From Pseudocolwellia sp. AS88 (GTDB lineage: Bacteria > Pseudomonadota > Gammaproteobacteria > Enterobacterales > Alteromonadaceae): 64,000 nucleotides of DNA. The translations under genes were made by a program, and so were the position numbers. The DNA lies in assembly GCF_030551755.1 (NCBI RefSeq), contig NZ_JAUPEC010000012.1, forward strand, positions 1 to 64,000. The letters are read 5' to 3'. Below are positions 41,647 through 50,860 of this stretch, piece by piece. The notes under the pieces are model-generated. The model worked only from the letters and a program-made list of their open reading frames with translations, made no database searches and had not been told where the DNA came from. Numbering within the stretch: position 1 is the stretch's first letter; each line of letters starts with the position of its first letter.

Positions 41647-42336
41647 TTATGTCGATGTATCTGTAATACCATTTAAAATAAGTTGGGTTATAGATTGTAA
41701 GGTCGAGTTAAAAAAATCTGGATCGTTTAAGTCCTTTCCCGCGACTGCTAAGATTTGTACATTGAAGTCAGCATAATGTTGAGTGATTGCCCAAATACTG
41801 AAAATTAAATGATATGGGTCTATTGGTTTCAATTTACCTTGATCTATCCATTGCTGAATCACCTGAGCTTTCTGCTTTACCAAACTTTGTACATTGGTAT
41901 TTAATACACTGGTTATTAATGGCGCACCTTGGAGTAATTCCATACAAAACAGTTTAGATTCAGCAGGATTATCCCTAGATAGCTCAAGTTTTACTTTTAT
42001 ATACTGCGTGATTGCTTTAACTGCTTCTTGCTCAGCAGAAAAGCTTTGTAGTGGTGTTAACCACACTTCTAGTAACTGTGTTATCACCTCAAGATAAAGT
42101 TGTTCTTTATTTTTAAAATAATACAACAAATTTGTTTTTGAGACTCCTGCAAGTTCAGCAATTTGCTCAACACGGGTACCCTTAATGCCTTGTTTAGAAA
42201 AAAGATCCAGCGCAGCTTTCATTATCTTTTGTCGTTTGTTTTTTAGAATAAGCTCTCTTTTTGCTAATGTTTTAGAGCTGAAGGTTCGTGATGTTTTTTT
42301 TTGTTTAGATTTAGAAATGTTTACTGTACCTGACAT
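41647..42336 (-). CDS. rutR: TetR-family repressor RutR
   Basis: 229 residues. N-terminal HTH (~40-85: ALDLFSKQGIKGTRVEQIAELAGVSKTNLLYYF split around the recognition helix), then a ligand-binding all-helical domain with QLLEVWLTPL and FSIWAITQHYADF, as in E. coli RutR, which binds uracil or thymine and releases DNA. An extra basic ~20-residue N-terminal tail precedes the HTH. Divergent from rutA with a matching operator between them. Confidence 0.93.
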   Translation of the reverse strand: MSGTVNISKSKQKKTSRTFSSKTLAKRELILKNKRQKIMKAALDLFSKQGIKGTRVEQIAELAGVSKTNLLYYFKNKEQLYLEVITQLLEVWLTPLQSFSAEQEAVKAITQYIKVKLELSRDNPAESKLFCMELLQGAPLITSVLNTNVQSLVKQKAQVIQQWIDQGKLKPIDPYHLIFSIWAITQHYADFNVQILAVAGKDLNDPDFFNSTLQSITQLILNGITDTST

Positions 42337-42515: not shown

Positions 42516-42531
42516 TAGACCATTTAGTCCA
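42516..42531. promoter_or_regulatory. Candidate RutR operator
   Basis: TAGACCA-TT-TAGTCCA matches the E. coli RutR consensus TTGACCA-NN-TGGTCAA at 11 of 14 fixed positions and lies between rutR and rutA, 160 bp before rutA. The palindrome and place support uracil-responsive control of the operon, and perhaps of rutR itself. Confidence 0.7.
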
Positions 42532-42690: not shown

Positions 42691-43767
42691 ATGGATATAG
42701 GTGTATTTATTCCAATTGGAAACAATGGCTGGTTAATTTCAAAAACTTCGCCTCAATACAAACCCACTTTCGAATTGAACAAACAGATTGTCGTTAAAGC
42801 AGAAGAGCATGGTCTTGATTTTGCGCTTTCGATGATCAAATTGCGTGGTTTTGGAGGAGAAACAGAGTTTTGGGATTATAACCTTGATTCGTTTACCCTG
42901 ATGGCGGGTTTAGCCGCCGTTACTTCTAAAATACAACTTTACGCTACCGCCGCTACATTAGTTATGCCGCCGGCTATAATGGCAAGAATGGCCAGTACAA
43001 TCGATTCAATATCTAACGGTCGGTTTGGCGTTAATTTGGTTACAGGATGGCAACGTCCAGAGTACTCACAAATGGGCATGTGGCCAGGAGATGAGTTTTT
43101 TGGAAACCGTTACGAATATCTCGAAGAATACATTACTGTAGTTAAGGAACTATGGGAAACAGGTAAAAGTGATTTTAAAGGCGATCATTTCCAAATGGAT
43201 GATTGTCGTATGTTACCTAAACCGCAAGGTAAAATTCCGCTCATTTGTGCAGGGCAAAGTGCCTCTGGTATGGGCTTTTCAGCGAAGCATGCGGACTATA
43301 ATTTTTGTTTTGGTAAAGGTTTAAATACCCCTACAGCCTTTGCACCTACTTCAGAGCGATTAGTTGAGGAAGCCGCAAAAGCGGGAAGAGATGTAAGTTC
43401 AGCCGTTTTAATCATGGTTATTGCCGATGAAACCGATGATAAAGCCATGGCTAAATGGGAATTATATAAATCAGGCAAAGACCAATCAGCCCTAGACTGG
43501 ATGACAACGCAAGGTGCGGTAGACAAAAAATCAGGCAAAGATACTAATGTACGAGATATGACAGACCCTACCTCGGCAGTGAATTTAAATATGGGCACCC
43601 TTGTTGGTTCTTTTGAATCAGTAGCCGCGATGTTAGATGAAATAGATACTGTGCCGGGATGTAAAGGTGTGTTGCTTACCTTTGACGACTTTATTAAAGG
43701 AATGGACGATTTTGGTACTAAAATCCAACCGCTGATGAAAACTCGACAACATATTTATAGCGAATAA
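42691..43767 (+). CDS. rutA: Pyrimidine monooxygenase RutA
   Basis: 358 residues from ATG 42691 (GAGAAG upstream; a GTG four codons earlier is less likely). Luciferase-like flavin monooxygenase: [17 protein letters not shown] start and [19 protein letters not shown] mid-protein are RutA hallmarks. Opens the uracil ring between N3 and C4 with O2 and FMNH2, giving a ureidoacrylate peracid. FMNH2 comes from RutF encoded in the same operon. Confidence 0.97.
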
Positions 43768-43777
43768 GGTAACGTAA

Positions 43778-44521
43778 ATGTCAGAATCAGGAAGCTATAC
43801 AGTATCGGGCTATTTTCAGGATGCTAACAATGATAATCCAGAGCGCGTAATTATACCTGCGCGACCGGAACCCCTTTCCATTTCGCCAACTGAAACGGCG
43901 ATTATTGTGGTCGATTTACAAAATGCTTATGCCAGTATAGATGGCTATTTAGACAAAGCCGGTTTTGATGTATCAACAACCGGTCCGGTGATTGAAAACA
44001 CTAAGCGAGTAATTGCCACAGCCCGTAAAGCGGGTATGCCAGTTGTGTTTTTTCAAAACGGATGGGATCCCCAATATCACGAAGCAGGCGGGCCAGGCTC
44101 ACCCAACTGGTATAAATCTAATGCGTTAAAAACCATGCGCAAGCAACCCGAGTTAATGGGGAGTTTATTAGCGAAGGGTACGTGGGACTATGAGTTGGTC
44201 AAAGAACTCAAACCTCAAGTGGGTGATATAGTGCTTCCCAAGCCACGCTATAGCGGTTTTTACAACACAAGTTTAGATAGTATGTTACGTAGTCGTGGCA
44301 TCAAAAACTTGGTCTTTACTGGTATCGCAACGAACGTTTGCGTTGAATCTACCTTGCGAGATGGGTTCTTCTTAGAATATTTTGGTGTGATTTTAGCTGA
44401 TGCCAGTCATCAAGCCGGCCCACCTAATATTCAACAAGCTTCACTTTACAATATAGAAACATTCTTTGGCTGGGTGTCAAGTGTAGATGAATTTTGCACC
44501 GCAGTGGCCTCTTCAAGCTAA
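43778..44521 (+). CDS. rutB: Ureidoacrylate amidohydrolase RutB
   Basis: 247 residues, isochorismatase-like cysteine hydrolase. Catalytic triad residues are visible: Asp in [12 protein letters not shown] (~46), Lys in [13 protein letters not shown] (~155) and Cys in [15 protein letters not shown] (~190). Cleaves (peroxy)ureidoacrylate to aminoacrylate (or its peracid) plus carbamate, which decays to ammonia and CO2. 10 bp after rutA. Confidence 0.97.
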
Positions 44522-44550
44522 TAAACTGTCAATAAAAAAGGATAAACCTT

Positions 44551-44943
44551 ATGCCTAAAAAAGCAATTATACCCGCTGGAACTGCACCACCACTTGCTCC
44601 TTATGTGCCAGGTTCAATGGCCGACAATATTTTATATGTCTCTGGTACGCTGCCGTTTGACGAAAATAACGACGTGGTACATGTAGGTGATGCCGAAGCG
44701 CAAACGCGTCACGTTTTAGAAACCATTAAAAGTGTTATAGAAGAAGCCGGAGGAACGATGGACGATGTTACCTTTAATACAGTACTTGTTACCGATTGGG
44801 ATAACTACGGAGCGGTAAATAAGGTTTATGCTGAGTATTTTCCTGGTGAAAAGCCGGCACGCTATTGCATAAAAGTTGGCTTAGTTAAACCTGAAGCACT
44901 GATTGAAATTTCTAGTATTGCTCATATAGCGCCGGATGAATAA
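44551..44943 (+). CDS. rutC: Aminoacrylate deaminase RutC (RidA family)
   Basis: 130 residues, RidA/YjgF fold with [17 protein letters not shown], then [17 protein letters not shown] and [19 protein letters not shown]; the conserved Arg (~107) is present. Turns 3-aminoacrylate (or its peracid form) into malonic semialdehyde and ammonia. The stop overlaps the rutD start by 8 bp. Confidence 0.96.
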
Positions 44944-45727
44944 GCCTATGTATATAGAAGTTTTGGGCCAACAAAATGCAAATGCCCCGACTGTTGTATT
45001 TAGCTCTGGTTTAGGTGGCTCTGCTCATTTTTGGCAGGGGCAATTAAAAGAATTGTGTGAAAAATATAGAGTCGTTATATACGACCAGTTAGGAACAGGG
45101 CGAAGCCCAGCTCAATTACCCAAAAACTATAGCATTGAGCATATGGCTGATGAGCTGCAAGAAGCCCTAAATAAGCTTGATATTACTACTTTTCATTTCG
45201 TAGGTCATGCCCTTGGGGGGTTAGTGGGTTTAGTGTTGGCGCAACGAATACCAAAACAAATTATGAGCGCAGTGTTAGTGAATGCATGGAGCTACGCTAA
45301 CCCTCATACACTTCGCTGCTTTGCTATCCGGAAATCTTTGTTAGCAAGCGGTGATAATGCAGCTTATTTGAAGATGCAGGCACTGCTGTTGTATCCGCCA
45401 GACTGGATTAATGCAAATATTGGCAAACTGGAAGAAGAAGAGCGTCATATGCAGAAAAACTTTCCTGACATGGATAACTTGTTGTTGCGAATTGGAGCAC
45501 TTAGTCAATTTGATATTGATAAAGCACTAGCCAGTATTAATGTGAAAACGCTAGTAATTGCTAATAAAGATGATTTACTCGTTCCTTGGCAACAGTCAGA
45601 AAATTTAGCCAGTAAGCTACCATCGGCCTCGCTTTGTTTAATGGAATATGGCGGTCATGCGTCATCAATAAGCACGCCCGATGAGTTCAACCGCATACTC
45701 ATTGAGCATTTAGAAAATGTTTCTTAA
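44936..45727 (+). CDS. rutD: Alpha/beta hydrolase RutD
   Basis: 263 residues. [12 protein letters not shown] (~22-33) is the RutD-type oxyanion region; the nucleophile position is GHALGGL (Ala in place of Ser), with late Asp (~217) and GGHASS. RutD speeds aminoacrylate hydrolysis. Loss of the catalytic Ser is compatible with a role that does not use an acyl-enzyme. Overlaps rutC by 8 bp, so translation is coupled. Confidence 0.93.
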
Positions 45728-45757
45728 GGCATTTACCCCATTAACCGGATTAAAAAT

Positions 45758-46348
45758 ATGAACACACCACTATCAAACGACGCACTAGCACAATTATTTA
45801 CCCAAGCGCATACCCACACCACTTGGCAAAACAAAGCAATTTCGAAAGACACTATCGCTCAACTGTATGAGCTAAGTAAATTAGGCCCAACATCTGCAAA
45901 TTGCTGTCCTGCACGCTTTGTATTTATTTGTTCAGATGAAGCCAGAGAAAAACTTAAACCCTGTTTATCAAGCGGAAATGTCGAGCAGACTATGACTGCA
46001 CCTTGCACGGTGATTGTGGCGTATGATGCGGAATTTTACGAAGCATTACCTAAGCTTTTCCCGTATGCAGATGCCCGCAGTTGGTTTACGTCTAGCCCTG
46101 ATGCTGCCTATGAAACTGCCATGCGCAATAGTTCCTTGCAAGGCGGATACTTAACATACGTGGCAAGAGCACTAGGTTTAGACACTGGGGCAATGTCAGG
46201 CTTTGACCCGAAATTACTAAACGAAACTTTTTTTGCTGACAGTACATGGAAAGTAAACTTCTTACTTAACATAGGCTACGGAGACGGCGAAAAAGTCCAC
46301 AAACGATTACCAAGACTGAGCTTTGAAGAAGCCTGTCAAATCATTTAA
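45758..46348 (+). CDS. rutE: Malonic semialdehyde reductase RutE
   Basis: 196 residues, nitroreductase-like flavoprotein with [16 protein letters not shown] (~47-62) and [11 protein letters not shown] (~143-153), as in RutE. Reduces toxic malonic semialdehyde to 3-hydroxypropionate. Here it may compete with the CoA-acylating dehydrogenase encoded two genes downstream. Confidence 0.95.
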
Positions 46349-46368
46349 CAAAAACGGAAGAGCTCACT

Positions 46369-46908
46369 ATGACATTAACCGCCACAAATATTACAGAAAT
46401 TGACACACAAACGAGTGTGTCTCCAGCAGCATTTCGAGACGGAATGGCCAGTTTAGCTGGCGCTGTCAGCATTGTTACCACCATCGGTAAAGCAGGCAAA
46501 GCAGGATTCACCGCAACGGCAGTGTGTAGCGTCAGTGATGACCCCGCCACCTTGCTAGTGTGTTTGAATCGTAGCGCTTCTGTACATCAAATTTTTATGC
46601 ACAGCACACATTTGGCTATAAATACTCTAGCTGATAAACAAGACAATTTATCCAACTTATTTGGTGGAAAAGCAGCTATGGGCGAACGTTTTGAGCAAGG
46701 AGACTGGGGTACTTTACAAACGGGTTGTCCTGTACTTAACACCGCGGCTGTTACTTTTGATTGTGAGATTATTGAGTGTAAAAGTGTTGCTACTCACGAT
46801 GTTATTTTTTGTCGAGTTCTAGACATTAAGCAAAATCTAGATGCTGGCGCATTGCTATATTATCAGCGTGGATATTACCATGTTACTAACAACACCCAAG
46901 CTAAATAA
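46369..46908 (+). CDS. rutF: Flavin reductase RutF
   Basis: 179 residues, flavin reductase-like domain: FRDGMASLAGAVSIVTT (~22-38), GFTATAVCSVSDDPATLLVCLN (split over ~46-67) and NTLADKQ. Makes FMNH2 from NADH for RutA. 20 bp after rutE with a GAG Shine-Dalgarno. Confidence 0.96.
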   Translation: MTLTATNITEIDTQTSVSPAAFRDGMASLAGAVSIVTTIGKAGKAGFTATAVCSVSDDPATLLVCLNRSASVHQIFMHSTHLAINTLADKQDNLSNLFGGKAAMGERFEQGDWGTLQTGCPVLNTAAVTFDCEIIECKSVATHDVIFCRVLDIKQNLDAGALLYYQRGYYHVTNNTQAK

Positions 46909-46933
46909 TTGTGCTAATAATAAGGATTAAAAT

Positions 46934-48424
46934 ATGAAAATAGTTGGGCACTTTATTAATGGGCAAATATGCTCACCCGAGGGTCGTTTTCAGGATGTGT
47001 ACAATCCTGCAACAGGGAAGGTTGAGAAACAGGTATTACTGGCATCACCAGCAACCGTAGCTGATGCGATTGGAATTGCCCAAGAGGCTTTCCCAAAATG
47101 GCGAAATACCCCTGTCGCCAAACGTGCACAAATAATGTTTAAATTTAAATTTCTTCTAGAGCAAAACGCCAAAAAAATTACTGATTTGATCGGGCAAGAG
47201 CACGGTAAAATAAGTCATGATGCAGCGGGTGAATTACAGCGCGGTATCGAAAATGTTGATTTTGCATGCGGCGCTCCGCAGCTGCTTAAAGGTGAATACA
47301 GTAAAAATGTTGGTCCTAACATAGACTCGTGGAGTGAGTTTCAACCACTCGGTGTAGTAAGTGGTATCACGCCCTTTAATTTCCCTGCAATGGTGCCTTT
47401 GTGGATGTTTCCTTTGGCAATAGTGTGTGGCAATACGTTTATACTAAAACCTTCTGAGCGTGACCCTAGTTGTGCTTTATATTTAGCCGAGTTACTCAAA
47501 GAAGCAGGCTTACCAGATGGTGTATTTAATGTGGTTAACGGTGATAAATCTGCCGTGGATGCAATATTGACAGACGAACGAATCAAGGCAGTTAGTTTTG
47601 TTGGTTCAACGCCTATCGCTCAATATATTTATGAAACTGCAAACGCTAATGGTAAACGTTGCCAAGCCCTCGGTGGAGCTAAAAATCACGCAATTGTGAT
47701 GCCTGATGCGGATATAGAAAACGCGGCTAATCAACTTTTAGGTGCTGCATTTGGTTCATCAGGCGAGCGCTGTATGGCCTTATCTGTTGTGCTTGCGGTT
47801 GGTGATAAAATTGCTGATCAACTCATTGATAAATTAAAAAACGGCATGGCAAGCTTGAAGGTCGGTGCTTACACCGACGATAGCAACGATTTTGGTCCAC
47901 TGATAACGTGCGCTCACAAAGAAAAAGTAGAGGGCTACATTAATCATGCGCAAGAACAAGGCGCAACTATTGTTGTTGATGGGCGTAACCCAACTGTTGA
48001 AGGTAATGATGAAGGCTTTTACGTAGGTGCCACACTGATTGATAAAGTGGGCGCTGATATGGATAGCTATAAAGCAGAAATCTTCGGTCCTGTGCTACAA
48101 GTAATGCGAGTAGAGTCGATGGAGCAAGCCATGACGCTCATAAATGATCACGAATATGGTAATGGTACTTGTATTTTTACCCGCGATGGAGAAGCCGCTC
48201 GTTATTTTTCTGACCACATTCAAGTGGGTATGGTAGGTATTAATGTGCCTTTGCCTGTACCTGTTGCTTATCACAGTTTTGGTGGTTGGAAACGTTCATT
48301 ATTTGGTGATTTACATGCCTATGGACCTGACGGTGTGCGCTTCTATACAAAACGTAAAACTATTACGCAAAGGTGGCCATCTAGTGGTATAAGAGAAGGC
48401 GTCAGCTTTTCGTTTCCTAGTTAG
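46934..48424 (+). CDS. mmsA: CoA-acylating (methyl)malonate-semialdehyde dehydrogenase
   Basis: 496 residues, aldehyde dehydrogenase fold with PFNFPAMVPLWMFP (~152-165), FVGSTPIAQYIYE (~219) and nucleophile Cys in SSGERCMALS (~282). The Cys context and lack of the general-base Glu pattern are typical of MmsA/IolA. Oxidises malonic semialdehyde with NAD and CoA to acetyl-CoA and CO2. Located 25 bp after rutF, it gives an energy-yielding fate for the rut product, which E. coli lacks in its operon. Confidence 0.95.
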   Translation: MKIVGHFINGQICSPEGRFQDVYNPATGKVEKQVLLASPATVADAIGIAQEAFPKWRNTPVAKRAQIMFKFKFLLEQNAKKITDLIGQEHGKISHDAAGELQRGIENVDFACGAPQLLKGEYSKNVGPNIDSWSEFQPLGVVSGITPFNFPAMVPLWMFPLAIVCGNTFILKPSERDPSCALYLAELLKEAGLPDGVFNVVNGDKSAVDAILTDERIKAVSFVGSTPIAQYIYETANANGKRCQALGGAKNHAIVMPDADIENAANQLLGAAFGSSGERCMALSVVLAVGDKIADQLIDKLKNGMASLKVGAYTDDSNDFGPLITCAHKEKVEGYINHAQEQGATIVVDGRNPTVEGNDEGFYVGATLIDKVGADMDSYKAEIFGPVLQVMRVESMEQAMTLINDHEYGNGTCIFTRDGEAARYFSDHIQVGMVGINVPLPVPVAYHSFGGWKRSLFGDLHAYGPDGVRFYTKRKTITQRWPSSGIREGVSFSFPS

Positions 48425-48514
48425 TTAAAACATTAAGTAATTCCAAAAGAAGAACTTAAAGCAGTCTAATAATAATAATTTTTTAATATAAACACGTTTA
48501 TAAAGGGGTTACAT

Positions 48515-50773
48515 ATGAATACTTACATTTCTAAGATATTAGTTAGCAACATCTCGCCTGTCGCTTTGGCTGTTGCGTTTGCCGTAACTTCCATTTCTCA
48601 AGCTGCTTATGCACAAGAGACTAAAGCTGCGGATGAAGAAGTAATTGAAGCGATCACTGTTACTGCCACTAAGCGCCAGCAAGTTATATATGAAGTACCA
48701 ATCGCAATAAGTGCATTTGATGGCGATATGCTAGCAGTGCAAGGTATTACTGACTTAACAGATGTTGGAAAGTTTGTTCCAAACTTAAGTGTAACTGGCT
48801 TTTCAGCTGGGCACACTTCTTCTGTAAATCCTTTTATTCGTGGTATTGGTCTGCAAGATCACCTCATTACAACTGATCCAGGTGTAAGTATTTATGTTGA
48901 TGGCGTTTATTTAGGCCGCCAAGTAGGACAGAACTGGAGCCTGAATAATATCGAGAGAATCGAGGTGCTTCGTGGCCCTCAAGGGACGTTATATGGTCGA
49001 AACTCAATTGGTGGCGCTATTAATATTATCACCAAAGAACCCGAACAAGGTGATGTAACTAAAATTAATACGGAATTTGGTACACGTGGTCGTGTTAAAG
49101 CAGACCTATTTGTCAATCATGCCTTATCTGACACCTTAGCCTTTAATATGAACCTTGCTTACAACACACGTGATGGTTTAGGTGAGTTTATCAACGTACC
49201 TAATGCCGAATATGATGTAGGCGAAACGGAAGATATTTCTGGTCGAGTTTCTGTTAAATACGAGCCATTTGATGATTTTCGAATGATACTAACCGCTGAT
49301 GCTAATAATGGTGATGGGGGTCTACGACCTTATACCGTGCTTATAGATGAATTGCCTGGAGGGCGCTTTTATAGCGGGACAAATGGTTTAGGCCTTGAAC
49401 TTAGAAATACAGATGTTACACCAGATGGTTTTGATATTTACGACAACGCTACTGGTGCTCCAGAAGTAACGAGCGTATCTAATGAAGCTCGCGGTCTAGC
49501 ACTTACCACTGAGTGGGATATTAACGACGAGTATACTGCCAAGGTTGTTGCAAGTAGTCGTTCATCCAAATACAAGGCCGGTCTTGATGATGACGGTACT
49601 ATCTTTTTATTAGACCAGTATCCTGAACGCGGAGAAGCTGACCAAACCTCAATTGAATTGCAATTAAATGGTTACATCAATAACTACACCGACTTTGTAG
49701 CCGGTCTTTATTACTTTAATGAAGAAGGAAGTAATCGCCAAGGTAGCGACTCAAGTTTTGATGGTGGTGGTAATACGTTTCAACTTGATCAAGAAACAAC
49801 GAGTAAAGCCATTTACTTAAATGTTCATCATGATCTTACTGACGAACTTAGTCTTTCGGGTGGTTTGCGATACACCGAAGATGAAAAAGAAGCATCTGCT
49901 AACGTATTTGATCCCCTAGGTACTGTTTTTGATTCAAATGACTGGGATGAGATAACATGGGAATTGGCAACTAGTTATACCTTCGAAAATGGCATGAACG
50001 GGTATGCGACAATTCAAAACGGTTACCAATCAGGCCAGTATCCGGCTCGCCCTTATTGTCTTATTGGTGAGTTTTTTGGTGCAGGTGGATTTGGTGACAT
50101 CGACGGCGCAACAGCTGCTGTAAATGCAAGCAACTGTTTTGTTGCGTCAGATAACATTACCGCAATCAACTATGAAATAGGTATTAAAGGTCGTGTAAAT
50201 GAATACTTTGATTTGAGTGTTGCGGTATTTAACACCGAGTTTGAAGATTTACCTTATCAAGTAAGCCGCGTAAGTGAAGTTGGTTTTGACACCGCGAACT
50301 TAGTGGTAGAGCAAACTTCTCGTGGTATAGAACTAGATACTACGCTAACAATTGGTAATTTTAGTATGTTAACCAGTATTGGTTTTATGGACGTAGAGGT
50401 GGATGAGCAAGATGGTTTTGAACCTGTTGCACCATTAACCCCGGATTTAACGTTTGCGATTGGACCAACTTATACCTTTGATCTTGAAGGTGGTGACAAA
50501 ATTCGTGCGCGAGTGGATTACTCATATCGTGGAGAAATGTATGGCGAGCCAAGTTCAGAACCTTCGCGTTTAACCACCATCGATAGTCGTGAGCTTGTTA
50601 ACTTCGATATTGCCTATACACCAGCCAGCGAAGCGTATACTGTTGCTTTATATGGTCGAAATGTTTTTGATGAGCGTTATGACAATGCACGATTAAATAC
50701 TGGCGATTATATTTTGCAAATTTTAAGCAACGATGCCAGCGAATTTGGTGTACGTTTTTCAACTGAGTTTTAA
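48515..50773 (+). CDS. TonB-dependent outer-membrane receptor
   Basis: 752 residues. Signal peptide (cleavage after AYA, ~33), EAITVTATKR plug start, plug domain (~50-160, RGPQGTLYGRNSIGGAINI), 22-strand barrel and terminal Phe (GVRFSTEF). Lies 90 bp after mmsA with no terminator between them; a terminator follows it. It is thus the end of the rut operon and probably imports a pyrimidine-related molecule or nucleoside; substrate inferred. No rutG uracil permease is present. Confidence 0.93.
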   Translation: MNTYISKILVSNISPVALAVAFAVTSISQAAYAQETKAADEEVIEAITVTATKRQQVIYEVPIAISAFDGDMLAVQGITDLTDVGKFVPNLSVTGFSAGHTSSVNPFIRGIGLQDHLITTDPGVSIYVDGVYLGRQVGQNWSLNNIERIEVLRGPQGTLYGRNSIGGAINIITKEPEQGDVTKINTEFGTRGRVKADLFVNHALSDTLAFNMNLAYNTRDGLGEFINVPNAEYDVGETEDISGRVSVKYEPFDDFRMILTADANNGDGGLRPYTVLIDELPGGRFYSGTNGLGLELRNTDVTPDGFDIYDNATGAPEVTSVSNEARGLALTTEWDINDEYTAKVVASSRSSKYKAGLDDDGTIFLLDQYPERGEADQTSIELQLNGYINNYTDFVAGLYYFNEEGSNRQGSDSSFDGGGNTFQLDQETTSKAIYLNVHHDLTDELSLSGGLRYTEDEKEASANVFDPLGTVFDSNDWDEITWELATSYTFENGMNGYATIQNGYQSGQYPARPYCLIGEFFGAGGFGDIDGATAAVNASNCFVASDNITAINYEIGIKGRVNEYFDLSVAVFNTEFEDLPYQVSRVSEVGFDTANLVVEQTSRGIELDTTLTIGNFSMLTSIGFMDVEVDEQDGFEPVAPLTPDLTFAIGPTYTFDLEGGDKIRARVDYSYRGEMYGEPSSEPSRLTTIDSRELVNFDIAYTPASEAYTVALYGRNVFDERYDNARLNTGDYILQILSNDASEFGVRFSTEF

Positions 50774-50828: not shown

Positions 50829-50860
50829 AAGGCTGGTTGCTTATGACCGGCCTTTTTTAA
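50829..50860 (+). terminator. Terminator of the rut operon
   Basis: AAGGCTGGT (50829-50837) pairs with ACCGGCCTT (50846-50854), one G-T pair, followed by TTTTT. It ends the rutA to TonB-receptor transcript. Confidence 0.88.

What the first reader, a model, noticed from the sequence alone, without database searches (positions are those of the whole stretch)
42691..50773. Extended rut operon: mmsA and TonB receptor present, rutG absent
rutABCDEF is complete, but the usual rutG permease is missing. It is continued without a terminator by a CoA-acylating semialdehyde dehydrogenase and a TonB-dependent receptor. The first would turn malonic semialdehyde into acetyl-CoA (carbon and energy) rather than only 3-hydroxypropionate by RutE. 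The second suggests active outer-membrane capture of a pyrimidine compound. No TonB receptor for pyrimidines is well established.
Basis: partly seen in the sequence, partly recalled or inferred. Interest (0 to 1): 0.6.

Follow-up and report, generated by a model that had tools for sequence, protein, structure and literature searches.

The report
Rut operon beside a borrowed receptor
A bacterium carries the known uracil-degrading gene set, extended by an enzyme expected to turn its waste aldehyde into usable fuel, followed by an outer-membrane receptor that seems to have been moved in from a propionate-burning gene cluster, while its relatives use a different receptor that goes with pyrimidine-degrading genes.

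Summary
The genes are as described: rutABCDEF, a CoA-acylating semialdehyde dehydrogenase (mmsA) and a TonB-dependent receptor, without rutG. mmsA belongs: it follows rutF in 12 of 18 close named rut loci and is the genome's only MMSDH above cut-off. The receptor differs. Its nearest relatives (77-81%, three genomes) lie beside the methylcitrate (prp) cluster; it nests among them, and the 90-bp mmsA-receptor gap is homologous to their leader, so it was probably moved here with that leader. Of ten orthologues read, four lie beside prp, none beside the pyrimidine genes sought. A pyrimidine role for this receptor is unproven. The idea gains support elsewhere: an unrelated receptor (family B) holds the same slot in Alteromonas, and in 19 of 21 loci read lies by pyrimidine genes of three kinds: Rut (12), PreTA reductive (3), and a set with F420 genes in which preTA was not found nearby (4). 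An NCS1 permease lies in 13 of the 18 related rut clusters; neither NCS1 nor a recognised RutG was found in this genome.

The parts
41647..42336 (-). rutR, TetR-family regulator, divergent from rutA
   Evidence: NF011584 263 bits over cut-off 230; TIGR03613 292 under 368
42516..42531 (.). RutR-like operator TAGACCATTTAGTCCA
   Evidence: score 21.1 with a matrix that includes this site, next best in the window 11.7; similar boxes before rutA in relatives
42691..43767 (+). rutA (ORF opens at GTG 42679; ATG at 42691)
   Evidence: TIGR03612 677/498
43778..44521 (+). rutB
   Evidence: TIGR03614 402/378
44551..44943 (+). rutC
   Evidence: TIGR03610 240/169
44936..45727 (+). rutD
   Evidence: TIGR03611 346/239
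45758..46348 (+). rutE, malonic semialdehyde reductase
   Evidence: NF003768 290/152
46369..46908 (+). rutF, flavin reductase
   Evidence: TIGR03615 219, below cut-off 255, best model
46934..48424 (+). mmsA, CoA-acylating (methyl)malonate-semialdehyde dehydrogenase
   Evidence: TIGR01722 670/449; only one above cut-off in the genome
48425..48514 (+). gap homologous to the leader of prp-side receptor genes
48515..50773 (+). TonB-dependent receptor, here called A
   Evidence: PF07715 and PF00593 over cut-offs; tree
50835..50852 (+). weak terminator-like site
   Evidence: consensus match only

Best explanation
A RutR-controlled rutABCDEF-mmsA operon degrades uracil (and thymine) to ammonium plus malonate semialdehyde (or its methyl form). 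RutE can reduce this aldehyde; MmsA instead oxidises it to acetyl-CoA (or propionyl-CoA), so that ring carbon is recovered, and propionyl-CoA can enter the methylcitrate cycle encoded elsewhere in the genome. The receptor downstream is not an original rut part: it is a relative of the receptor that in Alteromonas-like genomes stands beside the methylcitrate (prp) genes, and it was moved behind mmsA together with its own leader. It is most likely expressed at least partly on its own. Its ligand is unknown; my best guess is a compound tied to propionyl-CoA metabolism, the step that mmsA and prp share. Shown here: gene content, conserved order, single MMSDH, orthology, leader homology. Inferred: enzyme activities, regulation, direction of the move, ligand class.
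For: rutF-mmsA in 12 of 18 close named loci; single MMSDH over cut-off; acnD over cut-off in the genome, with prpB, prpC and prpF around it. Receptor: 4 of 10 orthologues beside prp in two arrangements, three in one genus; the window receptor is sister to G262/G272 with G026 next, all three prp-side; gap-to-leader local scores 51, 51 and 61 against the best of 1000 shuffles each, 40, 34 and 35; leader core found at 5 or fewer mismatches only before this receptor in 2.44 Mb of held, partly overlapping loci; no RutR-like box in the gap.
Against: Six of ten orthologues are not beside prp. The window genome's own prp cluster is on another contig and no receptor was recognised in the 20 kb read there. 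No start site was measured, and no terminator-like site parts the receptor from mmsA, so read-through from rut is possible. No dedicated uracil permease was recognised in the genome, which is odd for an operon that feeds on external pyrimidines.
Confidence: 0.6

Rival explanations
1. The receptor was recruited as a pyrimidine (for example thymine) receptor: it replaced the unrelated family-B receptor that stands in the same slot in Alteromonas, and is expressed with rut by read-through.
For: Same slot as family B, which is pyrimidine-linked in 19 of 21 loci read; the window's genome has no B at E<=1e-150. In G017 a more distant A-like gene (39-42%) stands in tandem with B beside a pyrimidine cluster. 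Two of the four prp-side genomes also have rut and a third the F420-type set. Thymine carbon would end as propionyl-CoA (family knowledge).
Against: Those three genomes already have a B receptor beside their pyrimidine genes, and A stands elsewhere, beside prp. No close relative of A in the 80 RutA loci. The gene keeps the prp-side leader.
Confidence: 0.25
2. Chance neighbourhood: a generic receptor with its own promoter happens to lie behind mmsA and has nothing to do with pyrimidines or propionyl-CoA, for example an iron or other nutrient receptor.
For: Six of ten orthologues lie in varied places; the best NCBIfam match is the generic siderophore subfamily, 126 bits, under its cut-off of 223.5; the genome has many receptors (25 matches in about 21 genes).
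Against: Two separate arrangements beside prp and the metabolic bridge through mmsA make pure chance less likely.
Confidence: 0.15

Closest known systems
Rut pathway operon of Escherichia coli (rutABCDEFG, rutR) (recalled)
   Same: rutABCDEF in the same order, divergent rutR, RutR-like box before rutA
   Different: No rutG; mmsA added after rutF; a TonB receptor follows
Alteromonas rut clusters (8 named loci)
   Same: rutABCDEF-mmsA followed by a TonB receptor
   Different: Their receptor is the unrelated family B and an NCS1 permease follows; the window has receptor A and no NCS1 gene was found in its genome
Receptor beside prpBC-acnD-prpF in G026, G262, G272, G033
   Same: Receptor 62-78% identical by blastp (66-81% in the genome search); leader shared in the first three
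   Different: There it stands beside methylcitrate genes, here behind mmsA
mmsA operons of Cupriavidus necator H16 (PMC6572756, passages)
   Same: MMSDH-type enzymes linked to breakdown of beta-alanine, 3-hydroxypropionate and valine
   Different: Not shown as part of a rut operon in the passages; that organism is said there not to grow on uracil

Membership tests
Rut pathway operon | rutABCDEF enzymes present and in order | tested here: met
   Five of six over curated cut-offs, RutF below its own but best model
Rut pathway operon | RutR regulator and RutR operator | tested here: met
   NF011584 over cut-off, TIGR03613 under; box at 42516; binding not tested
Rut pathway operon | RutG pyrimidine permease | tested here: not met
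   None in the window; two NCS2 elsewhere, neither named RutG at E<=1e-30; no NCS1
Rut pathway operon | Uracil or thymine used as nitrogen source | not testable with these tools
   Needs growth tests
CoA-acylating methylmalonate-semialdehyde dehydrogenase | Score over the TIGR01722 cut-off | tested here: met
   670 bits, cut-off 448.5
CoA-acylating methylmalonate-semialdehyde dehydrogenase | CoA-dependent activity on malonate or methylmalonate semialdehyde | not testable with these tools
   Needs enzyme assay
TonB-dependent receptor | Plug and beta-barrel domains | tested here: met
   PF07715 68.5 and PF00593 91.2 bits, both over cut-off
Pyrimidine-linked receptor family B | Orthology with the Alteromonas rut receptor | tested here: not met
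   About 26% identity; separate fully supported clades; no B in the own genome
prp-side receptor group | Orthology with prp-side receptors | tested here: met
   Nested among them; shared leader
prp-side receptor group | Lies beside methylcitrate genes | tested here: not met
   Own prp cluster is on contig C1, the receptor on C4

The most novel reading that the evidence does not exclude
Alteromonadaceae have dedicated outer-membrane TonB receptors for pyrimidines: family B, which goes with three different pyrimidine-degrading routes, and, by replacement in the window's genome, a second, unrelated receptor taken from the methylcitrate locus that now serves the rut-mmsA operon (perhaps for thymine, whose carbon would end as propionyl-CoA).
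Probability: 0.25. Interest if true: 0.7.

Novelty: new variant of a known kind. Interest (0 to 1): 0.45.

Why it matters
Active outer-membrane uptake of free pyrimidines would be unexpected, since such small molecules are usually taken to pass through porins (recalled). The survey moves the test to a better gene: family B, which goes with Rut, PreTA and F420-type pyrimidine clusters. For the window, mmsA would let the Rut pathway give carbon as well as nitrogen and remove a reactive aldehyde, and the receptor shows how an operon slot can be filled by an unrelated receptor that carries its own leader.

Tried and rejected
Receptor as a conserved rut partner: rejected for this gene. In the 80 RutA loci kept of 103 found its matches at E<=1e-10 were 24-43% identical, the best ones over 136-170 aa and lying in family B.

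RutR control of the receptor by a box of its own: none in the gap (best score -6.1; best of random 300-bp stretches averages 0.07, 95% point 5.8), and none in the family-B or NCS1 gaps of eight Alteromonas loci (best 2.3). Palindrome TATAAACACGTTTATA at 48487: present but not found before the orthologues; I think it within chance for this composition (own estimate, not run). Hairpin in the leader: weak, -4.5 kcal/mol, four sequences of which two are alike, covariation term unfavourable: no claim. Inverted repeat of the leader as a shared prp operator: the one perfect match was in the leader itself; matches elsewhere had 1-2 mismatches and gave no pattern. Insertion borders: the neighbour gene's surroundings in G001 and G002 are not syntenic with the window, so no empty site could be read. 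Solved structures: sequence matches covered mainly the plug region of siderophore, colicin, haem, B12, PQQ and like receptors and say nothing on the ligand.

Literature (held library only, 10 searches). RutR+TonB+pyrimidine: 3 papers, one seen as passages (PMC5343134): RutR regulons were reconstructed there, and the three TonB passages concern HypR, HutC and NagR/NagQ, not RutR. TonB-dependent+rutA+uracil+operon: 0 papers. Searches (20 of 24 listed; 19; 3; 2; 6; 15 of 607; 5; 15 of 251): nothing on a pyrimidine TonB receptor or a rut-mmsA operon in the titles and abstract starts listed. Passages only were seen of PMC6572756, PMC7190382, PMC12507026, PMC13390362 and PMC4757865. RegPrecise and paper supplements could not be searched, so I make no firm claim that these links are unpublished.

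Full report
What is there. The window holds rutABCDEF on the + strand from 42691 (the ORF opens at GTG 42679; an ATG stands at 42691) to 46908, then mmsA after 25 bp, then after 90 bp a 752-residue TonB-dependent receptor ending at 50773. Between rutR and rutA lies TAGACCATTTAGTCCA (42516-42531). Boxes with up to 4 mismatches to the recalled E. coli consensus stand roughly 160-230 bp before rutA in 21 of 22 relatives scanned; L041 gave none better than 5. With a matrix from 16 such sites, the window's own among them, this is the best site in the 64-kb window, 21.1 against 11.7 for the next. The mmsA-receptor gap has none.

rutG. The genome has two NCS2 genes, about 4 kb apart on another contig; one is best matched by pbuX (401.5 bits, cut-off 414), the other has no NCBIfam match at E<=1e-30. 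No NCS1 gene was found. So no dedicated uracil permease was recognised in a genome listed as 99.99% complete. In 13 of 18 close named rut loci an NCS1-type permease lies in the cluster (family model checked on L044 and L040), so a rut cluster with NCS1 in place of rutG is common in this group.

mmsA. Of the 80 RutA loci kept, 18 have RutA at 83% or more to the window (L031-L046, L094, L098). In 12 of these 18 an mmsA 79-84% identical follows rutF; L033 is cut by its contig end. The window's copy is the genome's only MMSDH above cut-off; the next aldehyde dehydrogenase scores 308 against 448.5 needed. An MMSDH-type gene was also matched in all 19 pyrimidine clusters, at 55-68% in the seven non-Rut ones, though in G692 only in part (57% over 187 aa); the family model was checked on L224 and L235. 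That MmsA passes malonate semialdehyde to acetyl-CoA, and its methyl form from thymine to propionyl-CoA, rests on family knowledge; a related case in Cupriavidus necator was seen in passages of PMC6572756.

The receptor. I call it A. It has no close counterpart in the 80 RutA loci. Searches of 118 relatives (E<=1e-80) and 394 order genomes (E<=1e-120), which overlap, gave ten other genomes with a 66-81% relative and nine with one at 41-45%. I read the neighbourhoods of all ten. Four are beside the methylcitrate cluster: in G026, G262 and G272, of one genus, the receptor stands divergent from gntR-prpB-prpC-acnD-prpF; in G033 it follows prpF (acnD and prpF of G026 confirmed by family model). 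None of the ten showed rutA, preTA or hydA within the stretch. The other six are elsewhere. The nine distant ones also showed no common context, except that in G017 the gene stands in tandem with family B. In a tree of 37 receptors the window's is sister to G262/G272, with G026 next, all prp-side. G001 and G002, of the window's own genus, have neither this receptor nor RutA at the thresholds used.

The leader. The gap before the receptor aligns with the 90 bp before the prp-side genes of G026, G262 and G272. Local scores are 61, 51 and 51, against shuffle means near 20 and maxima of 35, 34 and 40 in 1000 shuffles each. A 28-base core occurs, at 5 or fewer mismatches, only before this receptor in 2.44 Mb of loci then held, which partly overlap. 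So the receptor gene and its leader are one unit that now stands behind mmsA. G033 and the other six orthologues do not show the core. The simplest history is a move from a prp-side place, perhaps in a donor like Alteromonas. The segment's GC (0.417; window 0.366; 30 own loci 0.372) and third-position GC (0.34 against 0.28, sd 0.04, for 43 other window ORFs) fit but do not prove it. The genome's own prp cluster is on contig C1, and no receptor was recognised in the 20 kb read there.

The other receptor. In 8 of the 18 named loci, all Alteromonas, a different receptor follows mmsA (family B, 772 residues) and an NCS1 permease comes after it. A search of 395 family genomes found B in 22, not in the window's genome (E<=1e-150). 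I read 21 of these 22; G443 has only fragments at contig ends and was not fetched. By: 12 are beside rutA; 3 are beside preT-preA-aptA-mmsA-ureidopropionase-type gene-NCS1-hydA; 4 are beside aptA-mmsA-hyuC-type amidase-NCS1-hydA together with F420 genes; 1 is beside NCS1 only; 1 is alone. In the 4, preT and preA were not matched at E<=1e-30 in the two stretches of about 18-20 kb read per genome. Genes were checked by family models on single representatives: preA, aptA, MMSDH, hydA, NCS1, cofG, cofH, cofD, cofE and TIGR03842 are over cut-off. The ureidopropionase-type gene matched only N-carbamoylputrescine amidase below its cut-off, preT only glutamate-synthase-type models below theirs, and the hyuC-type gene is named hydantoinase/carbamoylase or allantoate amidohydrolase by models it passes, so those roles are inferred from context.

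Judgement. The idea of a pyrimidine receptor is weak for this gene and much stronger for family B. I put 0.6 on a prp-type receptor moved in behind a genuine rut-mmsA operon, 0.25 on functional replacement of B by A, 0.15 on chance neighbourhood. The operon is a new variant of a known kind. The wider pattern around family B and the F420-type clusters is the more interesting lead. NCS1 members that carry uracil and thymine are known (PA0443, as stated in a passage of PMC13390362), and an F420-dependent luciferase-family reductase has been proposed for another N-heterocycle in Chloroflexota (passages of PMC12507026). None of this was tested at the bench.

Noticed in passing
L227-L229 and L142 with L235-L238 (G752, G720, G272, G017): Pyrimidine-type clusters (hydA, hyuC-type amidase, aptA, mmsA, NCS1, RutR-like TetR, family-B receptor) stand beside F420 synthesis genes and a TIGR03842 luciferase-like oxidoreductase, and preT/preA were not found in the stretches read: a candidate F420-dependent uracil reductase.
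   Followed up: partly
L223, L224, L232 with L239-L241 (G538, G653, G450): Family-B receptor beside the PreTA reductive pyrimidine genes with mmsA and NCS1.
   Followed up: yes
L148:5966-15265 (own genome, contig C18): Two NCS2 permeases with another TonB receptor (801 aa) between them and an adenosine-deaminase-like gene nearby (models below cut-off): a possible purine uptake cluster.
   Followed up: no
L142:8020-12756 (G017): A distant relative of the window's receptor (39-42%) stands in tandem with a family-B receptor in the F420-type pyrimidine region.
   Followed up: partly
L174 (G380): An orthologue of receptor A (62%) stands near genes that look by eye like histidine ammonia-lyase and a urocanate hydratase type; not checked by model.
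   Followed up: no
L156, L157, L158: 3 of 22 RutA matches in the order search carry one in-frame TGA; all three are in another family of the order.
   Followed up: no
window 48487-48502: Perfect palindrome TATAAACACGTTTATA just before the receptor's start, not seen before its orthologues.
   Followed up: partly
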